Positions 17,604 to 54,680 of a stretch of DNA of 64,000 bases are shown here, one piece after another. Origin of the DNA: Gracilariopsis chorda (Eukaryota; Rhodophyta; Florideophyceae; Gracilariales; Gracilariaceae). The stretch is from assembly GCA_003194525.1 (NCBI GenBank), contig NBIV01000028.1, positions 372,001 through 436,000 on the forward strand. Direction: 5' to 3'. The notes under the pieces were generated by a model, which was not told the DNA's origin, searched no databases, and worked only from the letters and a program-made list of their open reading frames with translations. Every line of letters begins with the position of its first letter. Positions within the stretch are counted from its first letter, which is position 1. A program made the translations under genes and the position numbers.

Positions 17604-17712
17604 GCGAGACCGATTCTTCGTGCTGAATTCCGCTATCTTTGCCATCATCCGTGGTCCAACTTCCTCCTGATAATCCGTTTCGAACGTCGTTCGCGAACCA
17701 GTTTTGGGTACA

Positions 17713-18242
17713 TGTAGTATAATACTAGTCAAAAGGCCAAGTGGGGAAGTAGTACCTACTAGAGGTAGCGGTGGCAGAGCACCAGCCACTAGGGTGACAG
17801 TCCACTGGGGTCTAGTTGTGTCGTGGGCACCTTCTGACGTGCAAGCGCAATGGGCGGGCGTTATCTGACGTCCCTACAGGTCAGGAACACTCGTAACGAT
17901 GGCTTGCAAGCCTTTTTCTGCTGGAAGCTTGGGGGCGACTAGAGGACGGAGGTGGTGCTTGCCTTTACTCCTCAGTGGCCGGCTGCACTCAAGCCAACAA
18001 ATATAGTCGGCCAGGCGCTCTAGAATACCGGTAACTACTACTAATATATTAAATAAAATACCAAACTAATATACCGTGCACTGTGCTGCAGTGCTCGGTC
18101 CATCGGAGGTCACACTTCAGATCACAATTATCTCCGACCCACGTGGCTAATATCGACACGAGCCAGTAGTGCTCTGGTTTTTCGCCCACCTCTTCGGCAC
18201 TCCATCTTGCCAGTCGTCTGACCTTAAAGCTATTGTACTACA
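17713..18242 (-). repeat. Element B, 3' LTR (unit 1)
   Basis: 530 bases with matching ends (TGTAGTA at the left, TACTACA at the right). A run of eight or more C just inside it at about 18,246-18,254 is the minus-strand polypurine tract. Confidence 0.85.
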
Positions 18243-20538: not shown

Positions 20539-21289
20539 CTGGTCCCTGGCGTATTAAGTAAAGCATTTGGTCTTCAATACTGTCCACATTGGTGCTAGTT
20601 CGAGATGTCTGCGCTGATATTCGTCGTTCAGGCCCCGCTTTTTTATTGTAGATCCACGGTTCTCCGTTTGTAAGGTCAGCTGTTAGGCCTTCAGGCATTA
20701 TTTGCGCGCTTCACACTCTCTGGGACTCTATTTCTCGTGGCCGTAGGGTGGATTCCTTTAGGCCATTCTAGTTACGTGTAACCTTCAGGCTCTGTGCCCT
20801 TATTCAAGTCCAAGGGTCCGTGTTTTGTGAGCTCAAACCTTATATCTTTGCCCATCATTTGCACCTTTCAGAAACCTTCGGACCCGTTTTTGAAGTTCAA
20901 TTACGGGGGTCTGAAGTGGCTGCAGTTCCCGCTCGACCATAGTTTGGCGTGAGAAAGGCATCAAAGGCGGTGCCGTGGGAGCCCCTTCAATAGCGCGCCG
21001 TGGCACGGGCGCAGTACTATGGGACGGAGGTGGTTTGTGGTGACGTCAGAATAAGTGTGGCCATAATTCCTCCGAACCTTAAGGGCACGCTGTGTGTGGC
21101 CTGTTCTCCATGCGGGCGTGTCAAGGAAGACCTAGCGAGCGGCGCAGCCAGGAGGTGGACTGCCGATGCACCCTGGCACGCGCTCGTGCCTATTCGCCAG
21201 CGGCGTCTCGGGGCACCTTAGCAGTGAAACTGTGATCAGGGATACGCCCTTCTCAGAGATCGCGCGCGCTCCGTGTAGCCCATTTTGGT

Positions 21290-21430
21290 CCAATAGCGAT
21301 TAATAAAATTCGCCGGGATATTTTCAGGCGGTATCCACTGGTCATCCTCAGGGCCATAGCCATACCAGCGGACTTTGTAGAGCACCTCACCATTTTCGTC
21401 AAGGCCATCGGGGACGATGCGGTCTACGAC
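21290..21430 (-). other. Element B: chromodomain-like remnant
   Basis: The minus strand reads D-R-I-V, K-V-R-W-Y-G-Y and W-x-P-x-E-N-I-P, the pattern of the chromodomain at the end of chromovirus integrases. It places element B in or near the chromovirus branch of Ty3/gypsy. Confidence 0.65.
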
Positions 21431-22039
21431 ATATTAGGGGCGGTCCTCTTCTGGTAAATACATGTCCTCGAAGCCTCCATAGCCGTCGTCTGACGAGACA
21501 GTTTTGCCGCCGCGTTTTCCATGGTCTTTTCCTAGGAACGCGGCATGTTGGGCCGGATCTTCGGCAACGGCATCCTACGGATCCACGTTATTGACCTGGT
21601 GACCAAGAAGGTTGGCAGTAGCGGCGCCTATACCCGGCGGTGCCACTAGGTCGTCAGTCCAGATGGTAATGGAAGCCTTAAGGGGGGCGCATCGATCAGT
21701 GGAGTGCGTGATGAGCATGTGTTGGGAGGTGGCGGCGTCAGAACGGATGGGGATGTGCGCGCAATGGCCTGCGGTACGCTCGCACTTCCGGTAGGGTGGT
21801 GCATTGGTCTGACCAATGGCCGAGGCGCCATGAATACGCGGTGCGTTGACACAATATCCTGAAGCCCGTCTTGGTCTATCGCAACCGTATGCCCAGTGGA
21901 CTTGATTACCCCATATAGTCCGATGGAACGAGGTACCAACTTCGCCACAATGTCCTCGCCCTCGCGGTTTTCCTTGGGTGGCCTGTCGAAATGGACGTAG
22001 TCTCCTGGGGAAAACTGTGGCACGAACCAGATGGCCCTA

Positions 22040-23194
22040 TCAAAGTCGGCTTTGTAGCACTTCTGTGCTTTGTCCAAACGGGGTCTGGGCGGCCTTCAGG
22101 ATAGAATCGATTTGCTTACGAGAATATCTTTTGGCCTGAGCTGGCGTCATTTCGCCATTAAATTCTTGAGGGATGCCTGTATTCTGTAGGTCGACCATGT
22201 AGGGCGGAGGTGCCCAGACAAGGGTAAGGTCAAAGGGTGTCTTACCCGTGGACCGATGGACCGGATTATTGTAGGCATACACCAAAGTTTGGACGTAATC
22301 ATCCCAGTCCAACTGGTGCTCAGCCACATAGTGGCTCAACCTAGAGGCCAGCGACCTATTAAAACGCTCCGCTTGTCCATTGGTCTGCTGTTTGTAGGCA
22401 GTGGTCAGGAGGTGTTTTAGACTTAAGGCCGAGCACACATTTTCAAAGACCTTGGAGACAAACTGTGATCCATTGTCGGTCAACAGATATAAAGGCAGAC
22501 CATGGGGGTATATCCGATGGGCCAGAAACGCCATGGCAACATCAGCTGCCCTGATGGACCATAGGGGAATAGCACGGGTCATCTTGGAAAACTTGTCGGT
22601 AATAACCAAGATGAAGGAGTGCTCATGGGTCGATTTCGAGAAGGACCATGGGATGTTCATTGCAACGAGTTTCAAAGGTCCTGCCACGGGGAATAACTTA
22701 GGCTTCCACTGGTGCAGCGCTCGTGTCCCCCGAATTCTAGCGCAAGCTGCGCATCTCCGTGCGGTCTCCATTATATCATTGGCCATGAGGGGCCAATAGA
22801 AGAATCTCTTTAAGGTTTGATACATTCTCATCTCGCGTGGGTGGCCATACAACCGAGGGTAATGAGCCAGGTATAGAAGCATTGCCTGAAGGGCCTTTAG
22901 AACAACGCGCTGCAGCGCCCCATGAGGTGGAGAGCGGCGGCACAATACTCCGTGACGGTCGTAATCAAACAAAGATCCAGAGGTCCCGACTTCATTAGCC
23001 CACTGTACACACTGTTCATCACCCTTCTGGTCGGCGAGGAATTTATAGAAATTTATGGGGGTGAGGTCTCTTATTTCCGCTTCGGCCACGTGGAATTCCA
23101 AGCATGGGTCCTCCCAGTCAATTTTGCATACCATGACTTTAGGTTCTTCTTCATTCCCTTGGCTAGTGCTAGCTTCTCCTACCAGGTCACCCAC
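22040..23194 (-). other. Element B: integrase region (fossil)
   Basis: Shows the gypsy integrase order: an HHCC zinc-binding segment (H-Y-P-R ... C-A-A-C), then core segments with T-D-N-G-S-Q-F and N-G-Q-A-E-R-F-N. Part of a multiply broken element. Confidence 0.8.
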
Positions 23195-23269
23195 TTCCAG
23201 ATCATCGTCTGCATCCTGTGAACCTTCTCATAGGGTGCGAATCTCATCGTTCAATGGGGTTTGATCCGT

Positions 23270-25015
23270 TTCATAGGTCCGGGTACCAGAGAACGCATGG
23301 GCGGCTTTGTGCTTTAAGCCAGGCCTATAGGTAACCTCGTAATCAAATTTGGCCAACTGATCTCCAGCGGGCCAAACGGGAAGACGCATCAGTCATAGGC
23401 AAAAGCCATAGGAGGGCATTGTAGTCTGTCCTAATGTTAAACCAAGTACCCTCCAGGTAAGGCCGCAGGTGTAAAACTGACCAGACAATGGCCAAGCATT
23501 CGCGTTCGGACGTGCTGTAGTACCTTTCAGCCTTCGTTAGCGAACGGCTTCAGTATCCAATCGGTCGATAGTCCTTCAAAGAATCCTGCTCTTGGAGCAG
23601 TTTGCATCCAACCTGGGTTGCCGAGACATCCTTATAGAGGATGTATGGTTAATGTACCCTGGTTAAGGCCAAGATTGGGGGGTTTACCAAATGCCCTTGA
23701 GGCTCTAGTAGGCTTCGAACTGCTCGTTCGTTAGGTCATCAAATTCCGAAGGGGTCTCCTTCTTGAGCATCGCGTTCAGCGGAGAAGCAATCTTCGCGAA
23801 CCCAGGGACAAACCTTCGGTATACATTGCATAGACCTAAAACGGATCGCAGTTCCGTGTTGGTCCTCGGCTGTATCGCATCCCTAATGGCTTTCGTAGTA
23901 CTTTGTGCCACTCGGAGCTTACCAGGGAAGACCACATGGCGAAGATAGTTCACAGAGGGCTGTAAGAAAAAACATTTCCTCTGCTCTAGAGTGACACCGG
24001 CCTACTGGAGTAACCTTGGGACAGCCTTCACATGAGTGAAGTGTTCACCAACTGACCCCAAAAAAATAATTATGTCATCCAAGTAGACCAGGGCAAACTT
24101 CCATTTGACCCTGGATAGTATTATAGCTCGCTGAAAGTTCGCCGGTGCTTTCATCAGTCCAAAGGGCATCCGCGTGTATCGGAACGTTCCCTCGTGGGTC
24201 GTAAAGGTAGTCAAGCCCTTAGCCTTGTCGTCCATTGGTACTTGCCAGTAGTTGCAATTTGCGTCCAACGTGGTAAAAACTTGTGCTTCTCCCAGGGAAT
24301 CATGACAGTCATCCATCCTCGGAATAGGATAGGTGTCCCCTTTGGCCAAATCATTGACCTTATGGTAATCAATTCAAAACCGTACGGTACCATCTTTCTT
24401 GGCCACAAGAACAAAAGAGCTTGCCCATTCGGCCTCATTGGGTGGGGCACGTTCAACTACTCCGGCGGTCCGCATCCTCCCCATCTCTTTTGCTACTATT
24501 TCTCTTTCTTTCAGGCCTGTCCTATAAGGGTGCTGGTACTGCGGCGTGGCTCCATCCTTGAGTTCGATGCGGTGTTTCGTCGCATCTATCTATGCCAGCT
24601 TGCCACTCCACATTCCGGCAAAGTCCTTCAGAAGGTCAATGACCTGTTTCCTATATGGCTCTAAATCCTCACCGAGGTGAATTTCGTTCTCCCAAGTGGC
24701 CACTGGTTCGCTGCTTGACGGCAGGTTTCCGAGCTGAACCTCCATGATGACCACTGGGGCAGGTAGTCTAATGCCAACTACCGTACCTTTGGGCAGCCTG
24801 GTGGGTTTATCGCAGAAATTACTCATCCTAACCGCAAATGGCCTATTGTGTACAACATTCATCACTCCATTGGCCATCAACGATAAATGCTTCGTGACCA
24901 ACTTGGGATAAATCTGCAAAGACACAAGACCTGAGGATTTCCACACTGCAGTGGCCGCCACTTGGGTCATCGATGGTATTACTATCGCCTTGTCCAAGCG
25001 TACTTTATTGGACAC
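23270..25015 (-). other. Element B: reverse transcriptase / RNase H region (fossil)
   Basis: Minus-strand pieces with reverse transcriptase hallmarks, including R-M-P-F-G-L and the Y-L-D-D catalytic box near 24,080, followed by RNase H-like sequence towards 23,300. Broken, several breaks. Confidence 0.8.
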
Positions 25016-27914: not shown

Positions 27915-27917
27915 GGA

Positions 27918-28440
27918 TGTAATAGAATAGTAGTCCAAAGGCCAATTGGGGATAGTACCTACTAGGGGTAGCGGCTATAGAGTACCAGCCACTAGGGTGA
28001 CAGTTCACTGGGGTCTAGTTGTGTCGTGGGCACCTTTTGAAGTGCAGGCGCAATGAGAGGGCGTTATCTGAGGTTCCTACAGGCCGGGCTCACTCGTAAC
28101 GATGGTTTGCAAGCCTGTGTTCTCTGGGAACTTGGGGGCGACTAGAGGACGGAGATGGTGCTTGCCTTTACTCCTCAGTGGCCGGCTGCACTCACGTCAA
28201 CTAATATAGTCGGCGAGGCGCTCTAGACCACCGATAACTACTACCAATATATTAAATAAAATACGAAACTATTCTACCGTGCACTGTGCTGCAGTGCCAG
28301 GTTCATCGGAGGTCACACTTCAGATCACAATTATCTCCTACCCACGTGACTAATATCGACAAGAGCCAGTAGTGCTCTGGTTCTTCGTCCACCTCTTTGG
28401 CACTTCAGCTTGCCAGTCTGACTCTTTTGCATAGTGTGGG
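27918..28440 (-). repeat. Element B, 5' LTR
   Basis: Aligns along its length with 17,713-18,242 with many substitutions and small gaps. The last 20-25 bases at the outer edge are poorly conserved. Confidence 0.8.
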
Positions 28441-28966: not shown

Positions 28967-30358
28967 TTAAGCTGTATTTGCTGGGCTCATCCCCTCTTTA
29001 GCCGGGGCAGCGACAGGGCTTGAAACAAAGTCTGAAGGTGGTTCCACACGCGCTGTGAAGCGCGAGTGGGCTTTTACTGGAGATTCCGAATATTGAAGCA
29101 AAAGAATCGGTAAGTCCGAGAGTCCCCTTGAAGGACGCGCAACGCTGATTGCGTGGGGCAAGGATCCTGCTGCGGTATTGTGAACCGATTGAGCGTCCGA
29201 GGTTTTGGGAGCCAATACGACATCCGAACTCGATTTAGGGGCCTGTAAAATGTGATCGCGGCTGTACCGTTCTTGAGAAGCACCAACTTCCATTACAACT
29301 GTGTCTCGGCTCACTGAGATGACTTTGTAGGGGCCATCCACTATGGGTGAGAGTGTGTGGCGTTTCTCCCTCTCAGGTTTACAATATTCCTTCCTGACGA
29401 AAACAAACTGTTTTGCCTCCAATGACGGGATGTGCGGACGGACTCGGGCATCAAAATTCCTTTGATACGTGCGTTGCGCTCGCCTCATCGAATATTTCGC
29501 GACCGAAACCATCCATGTGAACCAGTCTTTCCATCTGAGGTAATGATTAACAGTTGACGGGTACTTTTCCTGCGTTGGATACGACTCTATCGCCACAGGC
29601 GGTGGGGAACGTGAGAGAACCAGCTCGAAGGGTGATAAGCCAGTAACTCTGTGCACCTGCGCATTGTACGCGTATGTCACGGCATCGGTGTACAAATCCC
29701 ATTTATGGGAGTGCTCAACTGTGTATGCACGCAATGAGGACAACAACGTTCTGTTGAACTGTTTCACGTGCCCATTTGCTTGGAGATGGTATGTCGTTCT
29801 AAACAGATTCCTGACGTCAAGTATTCTACAAACGTCTTGGAAGAAGCGCCTGGTGAACTGCTGTCCGTTATCGGATAAGAGCCTGACCGGTGGACCGTAG
29901 ACGAGAACCCAGTGACGGACGAAAGCTTTGGCCACTGATCGTGCGGTAATCTTCTTTAACGCTACAGTCCGGACGAGCTTCGAGAACCTATCCGTAATTA
30001 CGAGTAGAAACTCATTTCCACGTGCTGTGTGAAGGATCTCACCGAGTATATCGATAGTGACAAATTCCAATGGGGCCCGTGCCAGGAACAGCGTCAATTT
30101 CTTCGCATAGCAGCGCAGTTTGACCAGTTCACCAGCAAAGTGGGTACAAGACCGTAAAATTGCGTAGCAATACAACGCAAGTGCGGGCCAGTAGAAATGT
30201 CGACGTAGAGTGGTGTAGAGCCTCCTTCCACCAGGGTGAGCAGCTATCTTCGAGAAATGCGAGAGATGTAACACTCTTGATTGGAGGGAATGAGGAACCA
30301 CGATTTTAAATTGTAACAAAGAATGAACAGTCCGTACCAAGTATCCTTGAGAGTGCAC
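28967..30358 (-). other. Element A: integrase region (fossil)
   Basis: A gypsy integrase with a zinc-binding segment (H-P-G-G-R-R-L-Y) and core segments V-T-I-D-I-L, L-S-D-N-G-Q-Q-F and A-N-G-H. This is the longest open part of element A. Part of a broken element. Confidence 0.8.
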
Positions 30359-30466
30359 TCAGAAAGAAATGTTAGCGCCTCCATTGAGTTGGGCACGAGT
30401 CTTCGTACAAAACGGGTCACCATATTGTTTGCGGATCACCTCCTCGGGGGTGATCGGTGCGAATGA

Positions 30467-32259
30467 TCAGGTATCCAGTTCGTCACCGTCAGCGACGAGC
30501 AGATTATCAACAATATCATTTGAAACCAGATCAGAGTTTGAATTTTCTTCGATAATAAAACAAGGGATATCATCGTCATCGACGGGTACGGTTTCCGTTT
30601 CTATTCCTAGACGGGATCGGGCATCAGCCTGGATATTTAGGGAACACGTCTTATAGGCGACTTCGTAATCGAACTCAGGGAGGTGCAGTCTCCAACGCAT
30701 CAGGCTGCCCGAAGGTTCTGTGACGGTCATTAACCAACGCAAAGCGGAATGGTCCGTATTAACGGTGGAGTGCGTACCCATTAAGTATGGTCTGAGTGTT
30801 TAGAGAGCCCATACCATGGCAAGGCAATCCTTTTCCGACACTGAATAATTCCGTTCGTGGATGTTGAGTGTTCTACACCAAAACTGACTGGTTTCTGTTT
30901 CTCATCGAGTGTCGTCTGGAATAACGCACAACCAATTTGGTAATCAATCGCATCTGTATCCACGGTATAAGGTAGCTCAACCTTAGGCAACGATAATATC
31001 GGTGAAGAGGTGACAGCCTCCTTAAGAGAGGAACGCTTCCACCTGTGTAGGATTAAGGGGGCCCAGTTTTAACGGCTGTGCTTTTCTGAGGAGATCATTG
31101 AGCGGTCCCGCAATCTTTGCAAAGCTTGGAATGAACCGTCTATACACGTTACATAACCTTGAAAAGAAGCGGAATTCCGTTGGAGTTGTCAGTTGTTTGG
31201 CCCCTTTGAGAGATTTGACCCGAGCTTCCTGAATCGGTAAGCGCCCATGGCAAATGACGTGGGCCAGGTACTTAACCGATTAGGTAAAGAATTCGCACTT
31301 CCTCAGCTTGAGGGTTACTCCACCATCACGCAACGTGGTCATGATTCTACGAAATGATCATCCAAGTTGTTGGAGAAGACTATGATATCGTCAACGTAGA
31401 CGAGATATGATCGCCATTTGAAACGGGCTAGGAGAATATCCAACGCACGCTGGAAAGTAGCGGCAGCGTTCGTTAACCCAAACGGTATACGCTTGAAGCA
31501 GTACAAACTTGAATGGCAGACGACGGGAGTCTTATCACGGTCTTCCGGCCGTACTGGTACTTTTCAGTATCCCCAGTTTGCGTTCAATGTGAAAAAAACC
31601 GTTGCCTCACCGAAAGAGTCGATGTAATCGTCCATTCGTGGTATGGGGTACACGTCTTTCACGGTGGCTGTGTGAAGGCGACGGTAGGCGATGAAAAAAC
31701 CCCAAGTCCCATCGGGTTTCGGAGTCAGTACTACTGAAGATGCCCATGGTGATTGAGCTGGCTCTATCACGCCTTCACGGAGCATTTTATCCAAATGAAA
31801 TTGTTCCTCCTCCTTTGCCTTGGGGCCTGCCCTGTAGGGGTGTTGAGCAATTGGCTTTGTGTCCGGTAACACGTCCATCTGGTTTTCCATGGCCGAAACC
31901 TCTCCGAGGGATCCATTCCACATTGAAGTGAACTCCCGCAACATATTTCGCAACTTCTCGCGGTGTGAATCCGGGACATGTCCGAGATCCAGATCTTCTA
32001 ATTCCTTTACAGGGTTCAACTTGCCGTAAATAGTAGAAACGGCCTTCTTTTCTGAATCTTTCGTGCTTAGCGACTCCACAGAAGAGTGGGAACCCTCCCT
32101 CTCCTTAGCATGAGTCGTATCGTTTGGTTCCTGAATTAATCCGAGTACATTTTCCGCGCACACCCTTGTAGGTATTAAAGCCGTTGGATGCGAAATTACA
32201 GTACCTACTACTTGATTCTTCGTCAGATACTGAGGCTCCTTGCGAAAGTTTGCTATCAA
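30467..32259 (-). other. Element A: reverse transcriptase / RNase H region (fossil)
   Basis: Separate minus-strand pieces match gypsy reverse transcriptase (31,400-32,259, including D-K-M-L-R-E-G-V-I-E-P and Y-P-I-P-R-M-D-D) and RNase H (30,467-30,990, including T-V-N-T-D-H-S-A-L-R-W). Broken, several breaks. Confidence 0.8.
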
Positions 32260-34780
32260 GATCTGAAAAGGGTGTCATTTGAGATTTGAACGACACCGCT
32301 AGCCAGGGCCAATTGATACTTCTCGTACAACGAGATGAGCGGTTGGACAACACGCGATCCTCCTAGGGCGGCAGCTACTGATACCCACGACTGTGATTCG
32401 AGCCGTATGGAGATTGGCCGTGCAACACATAGCTTGATCGACTCTTTTGGAGATGAAAAATCCTGCAAGGGGGCCGGAAGCTGAACCAGCTTGGATAAGG
32501 CACGCCGTAGCGAACGACGAACTATCAGGATGATGGAACCATCTTCTCGTTCAATTTCTCGCGCACGCAGACGAATTGATTCTACGGGGCAGTCACAGAA
32601 GTCACATCCCAAGCTAAAGGCGGCTGCAAGCGTCTTACAGACGATGAAATCAAGCTGCATCGAACATTTTCCAATCCTGATCATCAGAGTAACCGTACCA
32701 GCCGTCCTTATCAGGTTGTTTTTGGCATCAGAAACGTCCATGACGGGTCCTTGTCGGACACGAGAACGCTGTTCAGGCGGTAAGAGAGATTCGACAACGA
32801 AATTGGAGCCGGCACCTGTATCCAGAATAGACAGATGACGCACCATACTCTGGGCGGAAAGGCCAAAGTCAGCGAAAACCTTGTAGTTTCGCTTGGCCAT
32901 TACAATGAGTCTATCCGCGGACCGATGATTATTACACCGTATCCACGGGCGACTTAACTCACCCAGGTGGGCCGGGTCCACGTCTGTGGTGGTCAACAAA
33001 TTCCTTGAAAGGATCTTGACCGGTGAGCGAGGCTTTGACGCCTCGCGCGCCGCTGGCCCCGATTCAAGCGCCTCTCTAAAAGAGACTCTCCCACTCAATT
33101 TTTTCTGAGAGGCATCCGTTTTCACGGGAACAACGTTCTGCGGCATTGGAAAAGCCTGGGGAGCCGGTTGGAAAGAAATTGAACCATCCGCTGGAGCGGC
33201 ATGGTTCGCAGAAGCGGTGGCCAGGGAAGAACCAGGGCTGGGTACCGCAAAAGATTGGACTGGCGTAAACTTACGAGGAAACTCGGTCTTCGCACGCAAG
33301 TATGCAGTGACAGGTACTGATACCTGTTCTTCCGGGGTCAGGGCTTCATAGTTAACAACTACTTGGGCATCTCCCTCATATTCATGATACACTGTGGGGC
33401 CGTGTGTTCATGGTTGTAACAAAAGTAACAGATCAATGTCTGGGGTTTCCCGATTTTTCGGTTGTCATGAAAATTCTACGCCAACGCGCGCGTATTCACT
33501 GAACCAGGTCTCTGGTAGCGACTCCCGGTAGCATACGAGGCTTGTGGGCCGCGAATACGGTGGCGATCTGCATACAGAAATGGACTATCTGGTTCCTCCG
33601 AGGGCTCAGTCGTAGACGGGAGCTCCATTGTGAGTATGGAAATCAGATCATGCTGAGTGAGGTATGAGGTATCAACCTCCCGTCGAGAGTAGTACTTGGG
33701 CAGTAATGAAATTGACGACGGTGCGGCCTCCATTTGTAGGGACTAGGACCTGACTCGGCTTCCAGAGCGGCCACATAGGGCATCTCCTTCCGCCTTTGCG
33801 TACGGCACCAACTGTAAGTAGGTAACCTTCCTCCTGTCTTCTTGACGTTGGGTCACAAGAGTGCAAATAGCCGGATCCAATCCGTCGATGAACATCGTAC
33901 AACGCCCACTAGCGGGATAAACATTGCCACATCGGTGGAAGGCCTTGTTCAGTCTAACTGATTATTCGGTCTCCGTTTCTTTCGGGCATTGCTTAGTATT
34001 ACGCAAGGACAGGATGCCTTCCTGAATTGCGGTTCCTGTCGCGTACGAGCGTAGCAAATACTGAACAGCTTCGGACCAACAGGTGACCCCTCCTTCAGAG
34101 GCGCGAGGTGATCCTCTTACAGAGTTGAATTGAGCTTCTGCAATTCCACGTAGAAAGAACAGCAGAGCTATGTAATCCTGTACTTCACTCATTCCGAGGA
34201 TGTCTACCTCCGCTACCAAGCGTGAAAGAAATTCCAAAACGAGAATCACATCCTCTCTAGTGAAGTTCTGGTGGCCAAACGACAAAGCCACCCGCTTGAT
34301 GCAGTCTTTTACATTCCCGGTTCCACGGGGTGTACGATTCAATAAGGAGGTTTCCAAACAGTAACACCCGTATGGTAAGGACTTCCTGTACAATGTGTTA
34401 GTACACTTTAGTTCCTTCAAACTGGAGTGCTTTTTTCCCTTCTGACGGGCTCGAATATCACTATGAGTGGCTGCTGAACGACGCAAGTGCGATGAACGAG
34501 CGCGACGGTGACCGTTAGCAGACGATTCAGACAAAGCGGATTCCGCAGAGCGGTGAGACTTCACCGATGACCGGGATGAGTGCAAGTCATAGTCGTTGTC
34601 ATTCCGTTTTTGAGGGCGGTTTTTCTTGCGAGCACGGTCACCATGACCATGCGAAACCACGACTGATGGGTCTGCGTCGTTTTTATCACCTCTGGTGGTA
34701 TTTCCTAACGTCTCAAAACGGAACAGAACCCATTGAAGCTTTGATTCAACATCTTTCACCATATCTGGGTAACCTATCAA
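32256..34780 (-). other. Element A: gag and protease region (fossil)
   Basis: The gag-like part (33,962-34,780) is rich in Arg, Ser and Asp. A canonical zinc knuckle C-x2-C-x4-H-x4-C lies at 33,389-33,430. A protease box D-T-G-A-G-S-N-F-V lies near 32,800 in the frame 32,256-33,392. Broken, several breaks. Confidence 0.75.
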
Positions 34781-37160: not shown

Positions 37161-37245
37161 ACAGCTCAAACTAACGCGCCGGTTCGAAGAGGAAAGGGTA
37201 CGTGATGTTTTCAAGCGGCATTGCAACGTGCAAGGTGCGCGCACC
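37161..37245 (+). repeat. Left edge of duplicated unit 2
   Basis: Matches 9,075-9,159 without gaps, with 8 differences in the first 77 bases. It continues in register at 54,305 on the far side of the Mutator-like element. It marks the tandem junction. Confidence 0.85.
37238..37245 (+). repeat. Mutator-like target site duplication, left
   Basis: CGCGCACC, repeated at 54,305-54,312 directly after the element. The unoccupied version is at 9,152-9,159. Confidence 0.85.
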
Positions 37246-37510
37246 GGCACGAGCTGAATCTACACGGTGTATTTTGAGTAAAGACATACCCGATCACAGT
37301 GCAGAGTACGGATTGGCGCAGAGAGTGCCGCATCGGAGAGTACGGTATTCTAAGGTCATATATGAGCATATGCATCGAACCAGTCACAGGGCGGAGCTCA
37401 GATTCATGTCCTGTGGATGCCACCAGTACCCAACAATGACGTGCCAAATCATTCTTTTCATAGTCCCAACCAATCAAGCCACAGTCCAAAAAGAGCGCGT
37501 TTTCTCGTCG
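37246..37510 (+). repeat. MULE terminal inverted repeat, left
   Basis: About 265 bases whose reverse complement is 54,041-54,304, at about 92% identity by eye. Confidence 0.88.
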
Positions 37511-37548
37511 TTTCAAACTCAAAACTTGCCTTCGGCTTGGCAGTACAA

Positions 37549-38921: not shown

Positions 38922-38926
38922 ATAAT
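38922..38926 (+). repeat. Target site duplication of element C, left
   Basis: ATAAT, exactly repeated at 49,820-49,824. Confidence 0.9.
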
Positions 38927-39534
38927 TGTGGGGAAGCGTAGTGCTTAAATGAAAGGTGCCAACCGGTCGGCCGAGGCTTCAGCGGTTGGTGGGTGTAGTT
39001 TCCTAGGAAGCCCGGACGGAGAATGGGCTCAAGGATCCGAAGCGGTCGGTCAGGAGACGTCGGGCGAGGGCGGTGGAACCGGACGGACAACTGCGCCAGG
39101 CGTGGTCAGTGTGCACGCGTTGGGTGTTGGCGGTCGTGTACCACTAGTGGTGACCGGTCGGACTAGCTGCGCTACCTAGTGCGCCGTCTGTATCGCGAAC
39201 TAGAAGTAGGTGCTCGTAGACTTGGTCAAGAAACTTCTGGCTTTACTCGAAAAGGGGTAGTGACCGTAGTGGTACCTATATACTAGCCCAGGCCCTAGTG
39301 GCTCACCTCGAGGGCACTGTAATGGGCCTCGAGGTGCAGGCCCGTCGGCCGCACATGGGTCACTAATACTACCCTAGCTAGAAATAATAAAAATTAGTGT
39401 ACCGCATGGAAAATCTCGGTACGCGTTCTGATCATGTGCATAAGCACGCACGTGTACAACCTGTCCGATTCCCGGTCCGTCATCCGCTCGGTTACTCGCA
39501 TTCCCCACCTTACCCGCACGTCCGCTATTCCACA
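38927..39534 (-). repeat. Element C, 3' LTR
   Basis: 608 bases, TGTGGGG at the left and TTCCACA at the right. Confidence 0.93.
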
Positions 39535-40332: not shown

Positions 40333-42468
40333 ATGGTTCCTTCCCCAGTCACCACCAACTCCGAACCAACAGCGTGCGCACCTCCCCTTGCCCTGCCATC
40401 AGCCATGCCTCCCCCTACTGATCCTTATGCCCGTGCGGCTGGTCCGTCTTCGGGTAATATGCCCGTTGTTGCGCGCACGCTTCCTCTTCCCGGTCAGCAT
40501 CTCGACCATCGGGCTCAGCGCGATTACCGTCCAAATCGTCAGGACCGCGAGCCTCCGCTGTCCGTGCTGGAGTATCAGCGCCTCGCGACGCAATATCTCG
40601 ACGCTGTTCGGTTTGGTCGGATTCCATCCGTCCGGACCGATGCGGAGCTAAGCGTTCGTAATCCGAAGCGGACTGACGAAGAAGCTTGGAGGGCTCGTTG
40701 GGCCCATCTGCCAATCCCGCGCGGTGTTTACCCTGCTCGGACTTTCGGGCGATGCGATATGCCGTTTGTCGGTTGCCCGGAGGAAGTGGACTATCAGTCG
40801 CGTCTTTAGCGTCTGTTGAAGCGGATGCAGGATGACCCCTACTTTCCGGCGTCCGGGTGCCCCAACCTGTTGGAGCTCATTATGTTTGAGTCCCCTTTTG
40901 ACGAACTGTACTGGCTGCGTCGCTCCCTCTGGGGTGACAACGCTGCGACGGAAGCCCGTATTCGGTCATCGCTGGGGTACTTCTACTGCTGGCACAATGT
41001 CGAGTTCCATGACCTGGCACCTAGCGACCGAATCGGTGTGTACATGCCTATCCCGCCGGGCTGGAAGGACTACGATGTAAGTCGCAACCTGTCGGTCCCG
41101 ACTCCTCCGATATTGGTGTATCACACCACCGAGGTGTTGAATTCTGGACCGTTTTCGGATCGCGTCTTCCAGATAGTATACGCGGAGTGGGCGCTGTTCT
41201 CTTTCATGGCCTTCCTTCAGACTGCGATTAACGGCGTGTCCGTATACACCCGTGACCGGGATGCTCGGTTATACGAGATGGATGAAGGCCCACATTATGG
41301 CCGTCTGCTACCACTGCCGCTCGGCCTTGTGGACTTGATCCGCAGCATGGGGTTACAGAACATCCTGCGTGGCTCTCGGATCCCTACGGCCGGTGCGGAG
41401 CGTGCGTTGCGTCTGTCGGTGGAAACCGACTGGTCCAGTACCCCGGGCTTACTGTGGTATGACTTCTTCACTGAGGAGTTCCCCACCATGCCCGCGAGCG
41501 GGAACAGTGGGCCCATTTCCCGGCAGGAGCTTCCGGCCGGTCGTCGCCCCGAGTGGAAGGAGGTTACCGTCAGCAACTACTTCCCGAGCGGTTATCTGGA
41601 GTCGGACTTCCGTGCTGCCCCCAAGCCGATTTCACGCGGCCCGGTGGCCATTGGCCAGGCACCTCCTCCGACATCGGTTCCTGTTGCTCCGCTGGGTTCC
41701 ACCGGCTTCCGTTCGGTTCCTTATCCGACGACACCGTCCGTGCCCGCTCCAATCCGTCAGCGGGTGGAGAGGAGCTCGCAGACCGATGAGCCGTGGCTCA
41801 TGCCCGCCATTGAAGAGGCTTTCGATGCCCTATGCACTGTGTGCGAGAGCTTCGGGGAGAGTAAGCCCAAATCGGTTGAAGCTGCTCTCCTGTCTGCCCG
41901 TACTTGGATTCGTCGCGTTCACACCGGCGGTCAGATGATGAGGCGGACTGCTGAGGAGCAGATGCGTCTCCTGGAGAGTATCCGCGTCCACTCGGTTCGG
42001 TCGTTGGAACTGTATGGTCACCTCCTTATGGAAGCTGAAGCCTACGATCCCGAAATGGCCTCGAACAATCCGGCCACGTTGGCCGTTGCTGTTGCCCTTG
42101 CCCGTCCGGAGGGTACTGCGGGTCCTCCTACGGGAGAGGCTCCCACGTTGGACGATTTGACCTTGCGGATGGAGGGTGAGCGTATCGCTTCCCAGGCCAT
42201 CACGGACCTATATAAGGAGTCCCATGGCGGTCGGGGGGCTCTATCCGCTGTCGCGCCCGCGGTGGTGAACGAAGTGGTTGACCTTTATGAGGATGAGCCG
42301 ATGCCTCAGGCGCCAGCGTCTGGTCCTCCCAGCGGTCCGCCGAGCGTCGTCGTTTCCGAGCCCGCCACGGTTTGGTCTGCCTCGTCGAGGGAGGGGAGCT
42401 TGCCTCCGATCCCGAAGCGGTCTGCCCGTGCCCAGACTCCTGGTCGTGGCCGTGGTCGCGGTCGTTAG
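40333..42468 (+). other. Element C: antisense-oriented accessory frame
   Basis: Plus-strand coding-like region of about 2.1 kb opposite to gag-pol, between pol and the 3' LTR. The ATG lies in a strong context (CCGCCATGG). The N-terminal 80 residues are Pro/Ser/Ala-rich. The middle shares blocks with element B (Q-Y-L-D-A-V-R-F, G-Y-F-Y-C-W-H-N-V-E-F-H-D, Y-H-T-T-E, G-L-Q-N-I-L-R-G). The C-terminus is a G-R-G-R-G-R-G-R tail that could bind nucleic acid. AATAAA follows 27 bases after the stop. It has about one break. No known domain is recognised; antisense frames at this place occur in some plant gypsy elements (Retand, Ogre), but relatedness cannot be judged here. Confidence 0.7.
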
Positions 42469-42494: not shown

Positions 42495-42500
42495 AATAAA
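42495..42500 (+). terminator. Polyadenylation-like signal after the antisense frame
   Basis: AATAAA followed by GTGTGTG, a canonical signal plus GT-rich element, 27 bases after the stop of the plus-strand frame. Confidence 0.5.
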
Positions 42501-42792: not shown

Positions 42793-45700
42793 TCACGGGG
42801 TTGGTGTGCGAGGTGCAGGTTGTCGGCGTGAACGGCGGCGACGACGCCAGTAACGTGCAACGAAGTGTTGTGGGATATTACCGGCGGGCTCGAGCGTATC
42901 ATCCTCGGGTGGGTACTCGAACCACCGAACTCGGTACCTCATCCCGTTTGTGGTTTCCTCATGTCCGACTATTCGGTCTACGACCGCTTCACGTGGTCGT
43001 TCGTCGGACGGGGTCGAAGGGGAGACCGTTTGGTGGGCGTAGGGGCCCGTTGGGTCTGTGTCCGGCGCGGCTGTCGTCTGGGGTAGCGCCGATCGGGAGG
43101 AATCCGTGCGGGTGGTGCGCCGTGGCGCCCGAGTGATACGGTCGATGCTGACGCGGTTTTCAACGCCGTCTTCGTCGATGACGACGGTATCCTCCGTGGC
43201 GGTTACGACGCGGAACGGTACCGTCGTTTTCGGAAGCAATTTCCGGTAGTTGCGGTTGTATTCGTCGACGTCGGCCTGTGGGGCTGTCGGCATCCATTCC
43301 GGTCGGTCCACGTAAACCTCGTCGCCTGGCTTGAACCGGGGGAGAGTCCGTACGGATCTGTCAAAGTCCAGCTTATACTGGCGCTGGGCCTGAGTCGTCC
43401 GTATCCGTGCGGATGCTAAAGCGTCCCGAAGGCGGGCCAGGATGTATCGCTTCACCTGCGCGGGTGATGCAGTGTCCGGACCGTCATCGGGGACCGTCGT
43501 GGGTGACGTCTCGACCTGTACGCCGGGCGGATGCCGCGTTAGCACGAGATCAAACGGGGTGGTACCCGTAGTGCGGTGGACCTGCATATTGTATGCATAG
43601 GTCAGCGGCTGCACGTACTCGTGCCATGCGGTCTGGTGCTCGGCCACGTAGTGGCGGAGGCGCTCCACGAGGGTCTTGTTAAACCGTTCGGCCTGCCCAT
43701 TAGTTTGGGGGTGATAGGCCGTAGCGGTTATATGTTTGACGCCAAGCATACTGCACACCGCTTCGAAGAACTTCGAGACGAATTGGGTTCCGTTATTGGT
43801 TAGTACATATAGCGGGATCCCGTACGGGTAGACCCAGTTCTCCAGGAAAGCCTGGGCTACGGCAGACGCCGTAGTTGACTTCAATGGGATCGCGCGGCAG
43901 AACTTAGTGAACCGATCGGTTATTACCAAGACATATTGGTGACCCTTGGCGTACTTCGTAAATGGGCCGAGAATGTCCATCGCGACGAATTCCAGTGGAC
44001 CTGCAGCTGGGGAAAGCTTCAGGAGCTTATGATGTCGCTCGCGACTCCCTCGAGTGGAGACGCATGTGCGACAATCCCGTACGGTTTGGAAAATGTCGTT
44101 GGCCATCCCGGGCCAATAGTAGTGCCGCCGGAGGGTGTTATACATCTTTGTAGCACCCGGATGACCGGCATACCTGGGGTAATGGGACAAGTACAGAAGT
44201 CTCGCTTGCAGATTCTCCGGTACGTACCATTGGAGGGCCCCATCGAGCGGTGCCTTCCTTACCAATATCCCGTTTCGGTTCACGTCAAAGAGACTTTTCC
44301 CGTCTCCTACTTTCTCCCGTGCCGACAGGCAGAGGGGGTCCTTCGCCTGCTCCTGCAGGAACTCTTCCACCGATATCGGACTGACGTCCTCCATTTCGGT
44401 GTTCACCTCGAGCACCGTGGGTAGCCCCAGTCCAACTGGTCCTTCCCACGGCCAATCAACCATGACGGTCTCTTCTATACCGTCATAACAAACCGTGGTC
44501 ACTGTTGGCGTTTCTTCCGCTTCGGGCTCGCTTCCGAGTAACAGACACGGGACCTCGTCCTCCAGTGCTTCTGTATCCTCACCGTCCGTACGGATCCTGG
44601 AAAGGGCGTCGGCTGCTTGGTGTTTTACTCCCGGGCGGTGTACGAAGTCAAAGTCGTACTCCATGAGGCGGAGTCTCCACCTCGCTAACCGTCCGGACGC
44701 ATCGGCTAAATTGAGGATCCACCTCAATGAGTGATGGTCCGTTCGGAGAGTGAAACGCGTGCCTTCCAGGTACGGTCGCAGATGCAAGATGGCCCAGACT
44801 ACGGCCAAGCATTCCCGTTCGGTTGTTGAGTATTTCCGTTCGGTTTTGCTTAATGACCGACTCCAGTAACCGATCGGTCGCAGATCACCTTCAGGTTGCT
44901 CCTGGAGGAGACAGCATCCGACCTGGATGTTACAAGCGTCTGTGTCCAGGACGTACTTGTATCCATTTCGGGGGAGGGCCAGGATTGGCGGGCGTATGAG
45001 ACGTTGGCGCAGATCGTCAAACGCCTCATATTCCGCATCGGTCAGTGTCTCAAACTCGAAGGGCTGGTCTTTCTCCAGTTTCCGGTTGAGCGGGCTGGCG
45101 ATGCGAGCAAATCCCTCTACAAAGCGACGGAACACGTTGCATAGGCCAAGGAACGAGCGGAGTTCCGTCTGGTTGGTAGGGGGTTTCGCCTGCTGCAAAG
45201 TGTCGCAAGCTTTGCCAGACACTTGTAGCCTGCCTGGACGGATCACATGGCCGAGATAGTCGACCGCCTGATGGAAGAAGAAGCACTTCTCCAGGCGTAG
45301 AGTGATGCCAGCCGAACGAAGGAGTTCCAGTACGGTCTGTACATGCCCAAAATGCTCTTGGACCGATCGGGAGTATATTATGACATCGTCTAGATATACT
45401 AGCGCGAATTGCCACTTGACCCGTGAGAGGATGATGTCCAGCGCCCTCTGGAACGTAGCAGGTGCGTTTTTGAGACCGAACGGCATTCGAACATAACGGA
45501 ACAATCCCATGTGGGAGGTGAATGTCGTTTTATCCCGATCGGACTCATCTACCTCGCACTGCCAATATCCGCTATTGGCATCTAGCGTGGTAAACACCAC
45601 TGCATCGCCCAGTGAGTCAATGCACTCATCCATTCTGGGTATCGGATAAGTATCCCGTACGGTCATTGCGTTGAGGCGACGGTAGTCTACGCAAAAGCGT

Positions 45701-46020
45701 AGAGTGCCGTCCTTCTTTGGTGCAAATACGACCGGACTGGCCCATTCTGCGGACGACGGTTCTATCACACCCGCACGGAGTTGCTTCGTGACCTCTTCCC
45801 TTTCCAGGTCACGTCTCTTCTGTCCCGCTCGGTAAAGCATCTGGAAGATTGGCTTAGAGTCATCTTCCAGATGGATGCGGTGTTTGGCAATTGAGATTGC
45901 TCCCAAGTGTCCATCCCACATATCCGAGAATGGTTGCAGAAAGTCGGTGATTCGTTCCCGTTCGGACTCATATTCATCGCCGATGCGGACTTTCTGCTTC
46001 CATCCGTCCTGGTCCACCAC
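42793..46020 (-). other. Element C: pol region (RT, RNase H, integrase, chromodomain)
   Basis: A long open frame of 1,075 codons. In order it has a reverse transcriptase with R-M-P-F-G-L-K-N-A and Y-L-D-D, an RNase H with R-T-D-H-H-S-L-R-W, an integrase HHCC segment (H-Y-P-R-Y-A-G-H ... C-R-T-C), an integrase core with L-T-N-N-G-T-Q-F and T-N-G-Q-A-E-R-F-N, and a C-terminal chromodomain (D-R-I-V-G-H ... Y-R-V-R-W-F-E-Y ... N-I-P). Chromodomains on integrase define chromoviruses and are thought to steer insertion to heterochromatin. Confidence 0.92.
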
Positions 46021-46374: not shown

Positions 46375-46947
46375 TTATTCGATGTCGAGTTGTCCGTCGT
46401 GGGAAGCGATTCCTGTACGATCATACTTTGGGTGCGCATAGACGCGCTCAGGAGTGCGGACCGGTCGGGAGTGGTGAAAAGCAACCTGTTTCCGTTGTGG
46501 ATAGATAGCCGTCACGTGCTTGTCGATAAAAGTAGTACCGAGCAAGCACGGGGTGGCCAGGTTTGTTGAGACTAAGAAGTGGTCCCACACACCAAGGTTA
46601 CCGATTCGGATAAAAAGGCGGATGACACCCAAAGTCCGCATACGGTTACGAGACGCATCCGTAATGTTCGGGTGGTCTCGAGTAAGCAGTTTCGATTGCC
46701 ATCCGGGCGGAAGCGAATTCACATGGACCAAGTTGGGCCCGGCGCCGGTGTCAAGGACACCAGTGACGGGTATCTGGACTTGGGAATCCAGACCGACCGA
46801 GAAACGGACTTTGTAATGCGCTCGATTAAAGAGCATTACCGGGTCGGTTTGCATGTTCCCAGGGTTGAGATCTTCGTCCGTATGGGTTGCTTCCGTGGGA
46901 TCGTGCGGTTCCGAATCGGGTTCTTCATAAGACCGCGCGGTTTCCAT
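46375..46947 (-). other. Element C: protease region
   Basis: An open segment containing V-L-D-T-G-A-G-P-N-L-V, the aspartic protease box of gypsy elements. It sits between gag and pol. Confidence 0.75.
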
Positions 46948-46982: not shown

Positions 46983-49175
46983 CTATGCACCCTCCGGGTA
47001 GTTTTCCAGAGCGGGTGGTGAATCGGCGTCCACCAGGTGGACCGGTGGGTTTGTCTGTTCCGAGCGGTGAGGGGGGTCCGTTTGGGCTTGCGGAAAGCCC
47101 TGGCGGGGCCCTTGGTATCTCCGCCCGGGTCCGTTGTTGGTTGCAGTGCCGTGCGAGTTCCGAGGGAAATTATAGAACCCCTCCTCCTTACGGCGGTTGA
47201 AGTTCACTTCCCGTGCGGCCAGTAAAGCCGCACGAACGCCCGGCGGTAGCATCCGGCAACAGTCCAGATCCCGGGACAGACAGATCCGGCACGGCTTGTC
47301 CATTAATCGTGCGGATGTGGGGGCCGCTCCTCGTGGAGGGGCGGTGAACTGGACCGCTCGGGACGAGTGCGACGTGGTGGTGGTGGGTGTCGTCGGAGGG
47401 GATGGCAAGGTGTTGCCATTCCCAACTGCGAACACTTGTCCATCACCAAGCGCGGACTCGTATTCGTCCGAGTCGGTGTCCAAACTCATCACCTTCGAGC
47501 GTGTGCCCTTCCGATGAGTTGGCAGAGAATCCGTGCGGGTCGCCTGCCGTCTGGCGGCACGGTGCGTGTCGCCATACGATTCCGCATATCGGGCGAGGGC
47601 ATTCAGGCCGATGTGCGGGTGACTTGTCAGATGATTTCTGACCTTGGACCGTATAGCGGGCAGCAAGTTCTCCACAAAGACGGACTTCAAACGTCTGTCC
47701 GAGAACACGTTTCCGCAACGGAGGGCTTTGTCCCAGAGCTTCTGAGCGAATTCCGTTTCGGACATGCCCGACGACTGGCGGTAGTTTGTCACATCCGCGT
47801 ATGCGTCTGCGATAACCTCGTCGGTCGCATACGTGGTCAACAGGAAGTTGACCACTTCGGAGTATGTCCGTAAGGTTTCCCGGCTTCGGACGTCCACAGC
47901 GTTCGTCTCCCCCGTGATGCGGGAGTGTACCAGCGAGTGGGCCGATCCGTTCAGATAGAACTGGAAGCACCAGAGAGCTGCGCCCTCTGTGATCCCGTTG
48001 TGGTCACATGCGGTCTTGAACCGCTGTAAGAAGCCCAGTACGGCGATAGGGTCCGATCCGGAGAACGGGTTACCCTTAAGCTGAATATCCAGCTTCTTGT
48101 GGTAGCGGCCAATATATCTGGCCACTTTGGAGTCGTACCGAGCGGACTTCTTCAATAGGCGGTAGGATCTGTAGTCTACCGCCTTTTTGAACAGGTCATT
48201 CAACGGCCTGAGTCGCTTGAGCGACCTCTTGCCCGAACGGTACCGCAAATCACGCGAGTCATCACTCGCCTCTGAGTTCGACTGGTTGAACTCTTCTTCT
48301 GACTCTGTAAAGTCCGAGCGGTCCGTGTCTGAGTCCGAACGGTCTCTACGTTTCCCACGGCGGGACCTTTTCTTCCCGCCGCGTTTCTTGTGGCCCGAGT
48401 TGGGAGACTTCCCCCGACGGTCGCGCTTGTCGCGAACTGAGCTCCCATCCTCGGAGCTACTGTCGTCGGGATCTGCACCCGGTCCTGGTTGACTGGGGAT
48501 GGCCGGCAGGTATACCATTCGGGGAGCATCTCGATCGCTCCCGTCCGGTATTCCTGTACCGGTCTGTGGGTCTGGTGCGAAGCCCGTACGGTTTGAAACG
48601 TACTTTGGGAGTGCCTGGGGATCTTGTGGGTCCCCGGGAAGCGGCGGTTGTGCCCGACCAGATGGAACGCCCACGAGGTTGACGCTTGGCTTCAAGCGTG
48701 TCACGACCTCCCTAGTAACCGTGCGGACGATGTCAGACTCCTGCTGCTCCATAATCTGAGGTATCCGATCAGCCAGATATTCTTCGACCGCCACGGGTAC
48801 TCGAATCTCGAGTTCCGTGCGGACGAATACAGAAATGTGTGTCCGTATACGGTCCCACAAGTCATCGGATCCATCATTTCCGATCGTTCTTGATCGCGAA
48901 GGAACGCCCGTTCCTGGTGGTTGGGCTGGTGCCTGAGGTGCCGGCTGTCCGTGCGGTACCGAGGGAGCTGACGCGCCTCGGCTGGCGCGCAGCAAGGCCT
49001 CGGGGTTTTCCGTGGCGGGTTGTAGGAGTGCTGACGCACTCCGGGTGCTTCGGTTTGTAACCGAAGCGGTGTCTGAAGCCGCCGCCGATGCGGCTTGAGA
49101 CTCCGTAGCGGGCTTGGCTGGTTTGTGGCCCTCAGAGCCCTTCTGACTGGGAGGCTTCGGTAGCCTGGATTCCAT
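46983..49175 (-). other. Element C: gag region
   Basis: About 730 residues from the first ATG of the frame. An N-terminal low-complexity part is followed by a strongly charged R/K/D/S tract, a capsid-like helical region, and a cysteine cluster P-C-R-I-C-L-S-x4-C-C near 47,250-47,300 in place of the usual CCHC knuckle. Confidence 0.75.
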
Positions 49176-49192
49176 TTCGGCCCGTATTGGTT

Positions 49193-49210
49193 TTCTAGGT
49201 CGGGAGACCA
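49193..49210 (-). other. Element C primer binding site
   Basis: TGGTCTCCCGACCTAGAA on the minus strand, one base inside the 5' LTR. Confidence 0.75.
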
Positions 49211-49211
49211 A

Positions 49212-49819
49212 TGTGGGGAAGCGTAGTGCTTAAATGAAAGGTGCCAACCGGTCGGCCGAGGCTTCAGCGGTTGGTGGGTGTAGTTTCCTAGGAAGCCCGG
49301 ACGGAGAATGGGCTCAAGGATCCGAAGCGGTTGGTCAGGAGACGTCGGGCGAGGGCGGTGGAACCGGACGGACAACTGCGCCAGGCGTGGTCAGTGTGCA
49401 CGCGTTGGGTGTTGGCGGTCGTGTACCACTAGTGGTGACCGGTCGGACTAGCTGCGCTACCTAGTGCGCCGTCTGTATCGCGAACTAGAAGTAGGTGCTC
49501 GTAGACTTGGTCAAGAAACGTCTGGCTTTACTCGAAAAGGGGTAGTGACCGTAGTGGTACCTATATACTAGCCCAGGCCCTAGTGGCTCACCTCGAGGGC
49601 ACTGTAATGGGCCTCGAGGTGCAGGCCCGTCGGCCGCACCTGGGTCACTAATACTACCCTAGCTAGAAATACTAAAAATTAGTGTACCGCACGGAAAATC
49701 TCGGTACGCGTTCTGATCATGTGCACAAGCACGCACGTGTACAACCTGTCCGATTCCCGGTCCGTCATCCGCTCGGTTACTCGCATTCCCCACCTTACCC
49801 GCACGTCCGCTATTCCACA
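49212..49819 (-). repeat. Element C, 5' LTR
   Basis: 608 bases, same length as 38,927-39,534 with about 6 base differences. Followed by the target duplication ATAAT. Confidence 0.93.
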
Positions 49820-49867
49820 ATAATCTAGGATAAGCTTCTCTAGTATGTACTTTGGTACCGGGAGCTG

Positions 49868-54040: not shown

Positions 54041-54304
54041 GAAGAGAAAACGCCCTCTTTTTGGACTGTGGGTTGATTGGTTGGGACTATGAAAAGAGTG
54101 ATTTGGTACATCGTGTTTTGGTACAGATGGCATCCACGGGACATGAACCTGAACTCCGGCCTGTGACTGGTTCGATGCATATGCTCATATATGACCTTAG
54201 AAGACCGTACTCTCCGATGCTGCACTCTCTGCGCCAGTCCGTACTCTGCACTGTGATTGGGTATGTCTTTACTCAAAATACACCGTGTAGATTCAGCTCG
54301 TGCC
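54041..54304 (-). repeat. MULE terminal inverted repeat, right
   Basis: Reverse complement of 37,246-37,510. Ends ...CAGCTCGTGCC at 54,304 and is followed by the target duplication CGCGCACC. Confidence 0.88.
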
Positions 54305-54568: not shown

Positions 54569-54680
54569 TGCTACTTCCGCCGCTCCATCTCGCCAATGTA
54601 TATCCTTCCCACCATCCTTCCTCACACCTCGCACTCCACTTTTCCTGCTTCTTTCATCTCCTACACCTACAACTTCAACA

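What the first reader, a model, noticed from the sequence alone, without database searches (positions are those of the whole stretch)
40333..42468. Conserved antisense gene-like frame in two distinct gypsy families
Element C carries about 2.1 kb of plus-strand coding-like sequence opposite to gag-pol, with its own TATA-like sequence, a strong start context, and AATAAA 27 bases after the stop. Element B, whose LTRs and flanking sequence are different, carries a related frame in the same place (18,821-20,538). The shared blocks (F-C-W-H-x-V-x-F-H, Y-H-T-T, G-x-Q-N-I) imply protein-level conservation across an old split. I recognise no domain. The RG-rich tail suggests nucleic-acid binding. It may be an undescribed accessory protein of red-algal chromoviruses.
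Basis: partly seen in the sequence, partly recalled or inferred. Interest (0 to 1): 0.75.

Follow-up and report, generated by a model that had tools for sequence, protein, structure and literature searches.

The report
Antisense accessory gene in algal retrotransposons
Several families of jumping genes in what is probably a red seaweed carry an extra, backward-facing gene that natural selection has preserved, and its protein resembles nothing in the family and structure libraries searched.

Summary
Element C is a young chromodomain Ty3/gypsy element on the minus strand: 608-bp LTRs with 6 mismatches, ATAAT at both ends. Between pol and the 3' LTR it carries a plus-strand frame, 40333-42468, with one in-frame stop in this copy. 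The frame is a real gene. It has 87 matches in the same genome in about five element groups, and is convergent to pol in 18 of 20 loci examined. Between subgroups its codon-position differences are like pol's and dN/dS is far below 1. A poly(A)-type hexamer follows the antisense stop in 9 of 9 copies, and aORF and pol distances correlate at r 0.94. Relatives occur elsewhere, one in Agarophyton chilense. No Pfam, PHROGs or PDB sequence family matches; AlphaFold gave no usable model. Group E also has a multiplied deletion form that lost the core but keeps the helical part with its KRxR tail. Antisense genes in this position are known in plant and fungal gypsy elements; this protein family was not seen in my paper searches. 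Best reading: a trans-acting, probably nuclear, accessory protein. Gene: about 0.95; nuclear regulatory role: about 0.45.

The parts
40333..42468 (+). antisense accessory ORF (aORF) of element C; one in-frame stop in this copy
40807..40809 (+). in-frame TAG in this copy; open copies exist elsewhere in the genome
40201..40207 (+). TATA-like TTTATAA upstream of the aORF start
   Evidence: consensus match only
42495..42500 (+). AATAAA after the aORF stop
   Evidence: AATAAA/AGTAAA in 9 of 9 copies, 19-57 nt after the stop
38922..38926 (.). target-site duplication ATAAT, left
38927..39534 (-). 3' LTR of element C (608 bp)
   Evidence: 99.0% to the other LTR, 6 mismatches
42793..46020 (-). pol of element C: RT, RNase H, integrase, chromodomain
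46375..46947 (-). probable aspartic protease of element C (below Pfam cut-off)
   Evidence: E 0.0072
46983..49211 (-). probable gag of element C (weak Pfam gag match, below cut-off)
   Evidence: E 0.023
49212..49819 (-). 5' LTR of element C (608 bp)
49820..49824 (.). target-site duplication ATAAT, right
17712..18215 (-). LTR of element B at the aORF end
   Evidence: 89% to the other LTR
27917..28418 (-). other LTR of element B
21239..24694 (-). pol remnant of element B, in pieces

Best explanation
The frame is a genuine protein-coding accessory gene of a group of chromodomain Ty3/gypsy elements. It sits between pol and the 3' LTR in antisense and has its own promoter-like and poly(A)-like signals. 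Its product has a proline-rich N-terminus, a conserved core of about 330 residues, a proline-rich linker, a probably helical segment of about 80 residues, and a short basic tail (KRxR or RG-rich). Shown: coding status, purifying selection between subfamilies, convergence to pol, co-evolution with pol, and a multiplied deletion form lacking the core. Inferred: that the protein goes to the nucleus (the tail looks like a nuclear localisation signal) and acts in trans on expression, silencing or nuclear delivery of the element, as is suspected for the antisense genes of plant elements. Likelihoods: real selected gene 0.95; trans-acting accessory 0.7; nuclear regulatory role as the main role 0.45.
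For: 87 matches in the genome at E <= 0.001, a lower bound because 79 of 1096 candidates were scored. Pol convergent to the aORF in 18 of 20 fetched loci (the loci were picked among the group B and D matches), and a convergent aORF match in 48 of 68 pol places, a lower bound. Codon ML: 45 of 45 between-subfamily pairs have omega 0.012-0.171 with LR against omega=1 of 26.6-299.7; 16 of them have dS of 2.6-5.3, and the nine between sister subgroups have omega 0.045-0.096. Differences per codon position (0.29/0.18/0.61 for C vs C') are like pol's (0.27/0.20/0.59 for C vs D). Group E core vs B and C: omega 0.009-0.200 in 4 comparisons. AATAAA/AGTAAA 19-57 nt after the stop in 9 of 9 copies; chance per 70-mer 0.001-0.019. 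aORF and pol distances correlate: r 0.94 over 18 loci and 0.93 within group B (14 loci), permutation P 0.0002. Relatives elsewhere: P0002, P0009, and P0006 from Agarophyton chilense. KRxR tails in P0002, P0009, B and E. Group E: 17 near-identical copies without the core beside 10 long ones; 12 of the 17 have a pol row, eight of them in a 1500-aa open frame.
Against: No transcript or protein evidence. dS is high (2.6-5.3 in 16 pairs) or saturated (29 pairs) between subfamilies, so omega values are rough. The stretches compared were chosen as open in this frame, so their lack of stops is not independent proof. One opposite-strand frame also gives low omega (0.17-0.27), as it does in pol (0.22-0.30), because its third positions mirror the coding ones. 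Within subfamilies omega is 0.55-1.12 in 8 pairs, median 0.61 in 45 family-C pairs, as expected for copies drifting after insertion. The aORF evolves faster than pol (C vs D distance 0.53 vs 0.27). The multiplied deletion form shows that the core is not needed in cis and may be dispensable. No fold: AlphaFold mean pLDDT 40.6 and 45.6. No TATA-like box was seen by eye in the 200 nt shown for groups B and C'. Nuclear localisation rests on a short basic motif seen by eye.
Confidence: 0.6

Rival explanations
1. A structural or delivery accessory: the protein binds Gag, the particle or the pre-integration complex and helps nuclear import or integration, rather than regulating expression.
For: Basic or RG-rich tails and a probably helical C-terminal segment; co-evolution with pol.
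Against: No match to the element's own gag as a single sequence (hhalign probability 0.5%), to Pfam gag or to PDB chains. It is transcribed apart from gag-pol if at all, which suits a regulator better than a stoichiometric structural part.
Confidence: 0.25
2. The antisense RNA matters, not the protein: convergent transcription makes double-stranded RNA that restrains or tunes the element.
For: The aORF transcript would be antisense to the 3' part of the genomic RNA; this is discussed for plant elements (PMC7264820, part 2 read).
Against: Codon-position pattern and omega far below 1 between subfamilies need protein-level selection. A double RNA role remains possible.
Confidence: 0.05
3. An envelope-like or membrane protein.
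For: Position between pol and the 3' LTR, as env; one conserved hydrophobic stretch (best 19-residue Kyte-Doolittle mean 1.21-1.58 there in five proteins); L035 reaches 1.71 at another place.
Against: Antisense orientation. The conserved stretch stays under the usual 1.6 and holds a conserved charged residue in most members. Signal peptides were not tested.
Confidence: 0.03
4. A host gene captured recently and carried as cargo, or a chance long antisense frame.
For: No relative in Pfam; long frames occur by chance in GC-rich DNA; the flanks of many of the 87 matches were not examined, so a host copy among them is not excluded.
Against: About five element groups with roughly 33-62% identity between them, co-evolution with pol and purifying selection.
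Confidence: 0.02

Closest known systems
brtn, the antisense gene of Boty-like elements of Botrytis cinerea
   Same: An added antisense gene in a gypsy element whose gag-pol bears a CHROMO domain (PMC4227169, passages). A review lists Boty among elements with antisense ORFs between pol and the 3' LTR (PMC7264820, part 1).
   Different: Fungal.
gene23 of maize Grande and relatives (RIRE2, Wallabi, Gran3)
   Same: Antisense ORF between pol and 3' LTR, own promoter, nuclear protein (PMC7264820, parts 1-2 of 3 read).
   Different: Flowering plants. The protein was not compared; transcription and location of the algal protein are untested.
Transposase_28 (PF04195) antisense ORFs of Retand elements
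   Same: Position and orientation; present in 97% of clusters of recent elements (PMC11963269, passages).
   Different: PF04195 does not match the algal proteins. Retand is a non-chromovirus lineage.
HTLV-1 HBZ
   Same: Antisense gene of a retroelement; nuclear (as told in PMC11963269, passages).
   Different: No homology claimed. HBZ is a bZIP protein (recalled); the algal C-terminal segment shows no basic-zipper pattern conserved across groups (by eye).

Membership tests
Chromodomain Ty3/gypsy element (host element C) | RT, RNase H, integrase, then chromodomain, in that order, between LTRs | tested here: met
   Pfam above cut-off for RVT_1, RT_RNaseH, Integrase_H2C2, rve and Chromo; LTRs and 5-bp repeats
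Antisense accessory ORF between pol and 3' LTR (aORF-3R) | ORF downstream of pol and convergent to it, inside the LTRs | tested here: met
   window; convergent in 18 of 20 fetched loci
Antisense accessory ORF between pol and 3' LTR (aORF-3R) | present in most copies and conserved like the other genes | tested here: met
   48 of 68 pol places as a lower bound; purifying selection, though faster change than pol
Antisense accessory ORF between pol and 3' LTR (aORF-3R) | own antisense transcript | not testable with these tools
   only signals in the sequence: TATA-like motifs in C and D and a poly(A)-like hexamer
Transposase_28 (PF04195) antisense ORF of Retand | match to PF04195 | tested here: not met
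   no hit in 16 members nor in 4 proteins; no match in the genome, but that search's control rang nowhere
Grande gene23 family | sequence homology to gene23 | not tested
   gene23 sequence not held
brtn of Boty-like elements | sequence homology to brtn | not tested
   brtn sequence not held
Retroviral or gypsy Gag | profile match to gag | tested here: not met
   Pfam none; hhalign to the element's own single gag sequence 0.5%
Env-like protein | sense orientation and a transmembrane segment | tested here: not met
   antisense; hydropathy under 1.6 in 5 of 6 proteins, 1.71 in L035, so the membrane part alone is weak evidence

The most novel reading that the evidence does not exclude
The aORF is a self-encoded trans-acting nuclear factor of an undescribed fold (for example an anti-silencing factor). 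The multiplied group-E deletion form, in which the aORF's own upstream region is fused to the C-terminal part plus basic tail, makes a short version that antagonises or parasitises the full protein: copy-number control, or cheating, by an antisense gene, like the deletion repressors of P elements or the truncated p22 of Ty1 (both recalled).
Probability: 0.12. Interest if true: 0.75.

Novelty: new variant of a known kind. Interest (0 to 1): 0.5.

Why it matters
Antisense accessory genes of LTR elements have been reported in flowering plants and a fungus, with unknown function and unclear origin. Here such a gene, of a protein family not met in the libraries or papers searched, is kept by selection in about five element groups of a probable red alga and has relatives elsewhere. 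That would fit repeated, independent gain of such genes and a recurring need served by this slot. The coexisting long and core-deleted forms in one young group give a natural experiment on what the protein is for.

Tried and rejected
Chance ORF: rejected. Pfam, PHROGs and PDB sequence search for a domain: nothing convincing. Weak one-member hits (Oxidored_nitro, Nup192, IKKbetaNEMObind, four PHROGs of unknown function at E 0.22-0.42) were taken as noise.

Structure: two AlphaFold jobs on alignments of 17 and 15 rows gave mean pLDDT 40.6 and 45.6. No fold search was run, because matches to such models would be meaningless.

bZIP idea: group E shows RRASRY followed by a leucine-spaced stretch, but the basic part is not kept in P0002 or P0009 (by eye, and a simple heptad scan). 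Dropped.

Derivation from the element's own gag: no support (single gag sequence). Loci L034 and L046, where no pol faces the aORF, match their sister copies only up to a point close to the pol/aORF junction, so they look like broken copies. The chromodomain search (150 of 1784 candidates scored) was not compared systematically with the aORF places.

Papers: the listings of searches (titles and starts of abstracts) showed no report of this gene in red algae. The library lacks most subscription journals, so Steinbauerova 2011, Gomez-Orte 2013 and Zhao 2011 were seen only as cited in other papers.

Full report
What is there. The window lies in a 91.3-Mb genome in 1081 contigs, at G000:C28:372001-436000. 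Element C runs on the minus strand between LTRs at 38927-39534 and 49212-49819 (608 bp, 6 mismatches), with ATAAT on both sides. Its pol (42793-46020, -) has RT, RNase H, integrase and a chromodomain above Pfam cut-offs; gag and protease matches are weak. Between the chromodomain end and the 3' LTR lies the plus-strand frame 40333-42468, interrupted once in this copy by TAG at 40807-40809.

How widespread. A six-frame search of the same genome with the 550-aa part gave 87 matches at E <= 0.001 (79 of 1096 candidates scored, so a lower bound). By identity they fall roughly into groups: C (92-97%, one piece 88%), C' (about 48-62%), D (about 47%) and B (about 34-41%); some rows near 46-50% could be either C' or D. 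A fifth group, E, was met through pol; its core is 47-52% identical to B. Several copies are open over more than 700 codons. Of the 20 loci fetched, picked among the B and D matches, 18 have pol convergent to the aORF; the other two (L034, L046) look broken close to the pol/aORF junction. Of 68 pol places (69 rows, one being a second piece of the same element), 48 have a convergent aORF match within 6.5 kb downstream and 20 do not. The one same-strand match (contig C12) lies downstream of, and convergent to, another pol place on that contig. The 48 is a lower bound, since only 50 of the 151 matches were entered.

Is it coding? Eleven stretches, chosen as open in this frame, were compared by a codon model written for the purpose. 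Of 55 possible pairs 53 gave at least 100 codons. All 45 pairs between subfamilies have omega 0.012-0.171 with LR against omega = 1 of 26.6 to 299.7. In 16 of them dS is 2.6-5.3 (omega 0.045-0.171); nine of these 16 join sister subgroups (C with C', or the two B subgroups) and have omega 0.045-0.096. In the other 29 dS is above 5.3, so the ratio there is only qualitative. Group E's core against B and C gives omega 0.009-0.200 in 4 comparisons, the highest being against C. The 8 pairs within a subfamily have omega 0.55-1.12, and 45 pairs within family C have a median of 0.61, as expected when copies drift after insertion. In the six-frame control (six comparisons) the other five frames hold 11-41 stop-containing codon pairs each and the aORF frame none; this is partly by choice of open stretches. 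Independent of that choice, differences per codon position are 0.29/0.18/0.61 for C vs C' and 0.27/0.20/0.59 for pol of C vs D. Four of the five other frames give omega above 1; one opposite-strand frame gives 0.17-0.27, and the same frame in pol gives 0.22-0.30, a mirror effect of aligned third positions.

Signals. AATAAA or AGTAAA follows the antisense stop by 19-57 nt in 9 of 9 copies (4 of B, 2 of C, 1 each of C', D and E); the chance per 70-mer is 0.001-0.019 by shuffling. Group D has TATAAAAAG 30 nt before its ATG, and C has TTTATAA about 130 nt before; none was seen by eye in the 200 nt shown for B and C'. No promoter was tested.

Co-evolution. Distances of aORF and pol over 18 loci (element C, three of D, 14 of B; L031, L034 and L046 not entered) correlate at r 0.94, and at 0.93 within group B alone; permutation P 0.0002 in both. 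The aORF evolves faster: C vs D differ by 0.53 in the aORF and 0.27 in pol. The simplest reading is that the gene was passed on with pol for a long time and not swapped freely.

Relatives elsewhere. Protein searches gave one near copy (P0001, 97%), then P0002-P0008 and P0009-P0022; each search scored 7994 candidates. P0002 (674 aa) and P0009 (652 aa) cover most of the length and are about 50% identical to each other; P0006 is named as Agarophyton chilense. P0010 joins a bacterial DnaA start to the aORF and is most likely an assembly chimera. No convincing match was found in Pfam, PHROGs or PDB sequences. AlphaFold models were poor.

Anatomy of the protein. From the alignments: a proline-rich N-terminus; a core with FCWHxVEFHDM, VPTPxVxAYH, EWAVxxLMAFL, GRLxPLP, GVQNIxRGT and DWxxTPGFLWYD; a proline-rich linker; a probably helical segment; and a tail of KRxR type (B, E, P0002, P0009) or RG-rich (C, C', D). 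Hydropathy shows no clear transmembrane segment in 5 of 6 proteins; L035 reaches 1.71 outside the conserved stretch.

Group E's natural deletion. L051, next to a group-E pol with a 1500-aa open frame, has only a 192-codon antisense frame. It matches the C-terminal segment and tail of B at about 42% over 120 aa, E 1.6e-15, and lacks the core. In the genome 17 places match it at 97-100% over the whole length (one with a stop), while 10 places match residues 22-192 at 90-92% inside 738-aa open frames (one with a stop in the match), and all 10 also have residues 1-44 matching about 2 kb upstream. One long copy, read in part, has most of the core (L052). Most simply, one founder lost the core by deletion, kept the upstream region, the C-terminal part and the poly(A)-like signal, and multiplied; 12 of the 17 have a pol row, eight in a 1500-aa open frame. 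The core is thus not needed in cis: either it acts in trans or it can be spared. From its first Met the short frame would give 142 aa; whether it is made is unknown.

Best explanation and rivals. Shown: a selected gene, antisense to pol, tied to these chromodomain elements. Inferred: a nuclear trans-acting accessory. The tail resembles a nuclear localisation signal, a studied plant analogue (Grande gene23) is nuclear with its own promoter (PMC7264820, parts 1-2 read), and the deletion form fits a trans-acting product. A delivery or structural role remains open. An RNA-only role, an envelope role and chance are disfavoured, as set out in the rivals.

Known versus new. [quoted passage not shown] In Retand 97% of clusters carry Transposase_28 (PMC11963269, passages). 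Boty-like elements have a CHROMO domain and the antisense gene brtn (PMC4227169 and PMC8365987, passages), so even an antisense gene in a chromodomain element is not new as such. New here, as far as the listings reach, are the protein family, the probable red-algal setting, the codon-level evidence with frame controls, and the multiplied core-deleted form. Homology to brtn and gene23 could not be tested.

Noticed in passing
window 9152-16000 and 54305-61154; shorter repeats reach 18697 and 63848: A large direct duplication at 99% identity that takes in the start of element B; its twin aORF lies just beyond the window (L050, C28:436363-437508).
   Followed up: partly
L051; C28:333512-334087 and 16 like places: Core-deleted antisense gene in a young element group, multiplied to at least 17 near-identical copies.
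   Followed up: partly
window 29129-34459 (-): A third gypsy element between B and C (pol 29129-31998, gag 33782-34459) without a significant match to the aORF.
   Followed up: partly
P0010 (590 aa): A public protein joining a bacterial DnaA N-terminus to this aORF, most likely an assembly chimera.
   Followed up: no
window 1403-7291 (+) and 7566-8777 (-): Ordinary host genes by Pfam: proteasome activator PSME4-like (1962 aa) and a class I tRNA synthetase of the W/Y type.
   Followed up: yes
window 37241-37512 and 54038-54309: Inverted repeat of 272 nt, 92% complementary, arms 16.5 kb apart.
   Followed up: no
L034, L046: Element copies that look broken close to the pol/aORF junction, keeping the aORF end.
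   Followed up: partly
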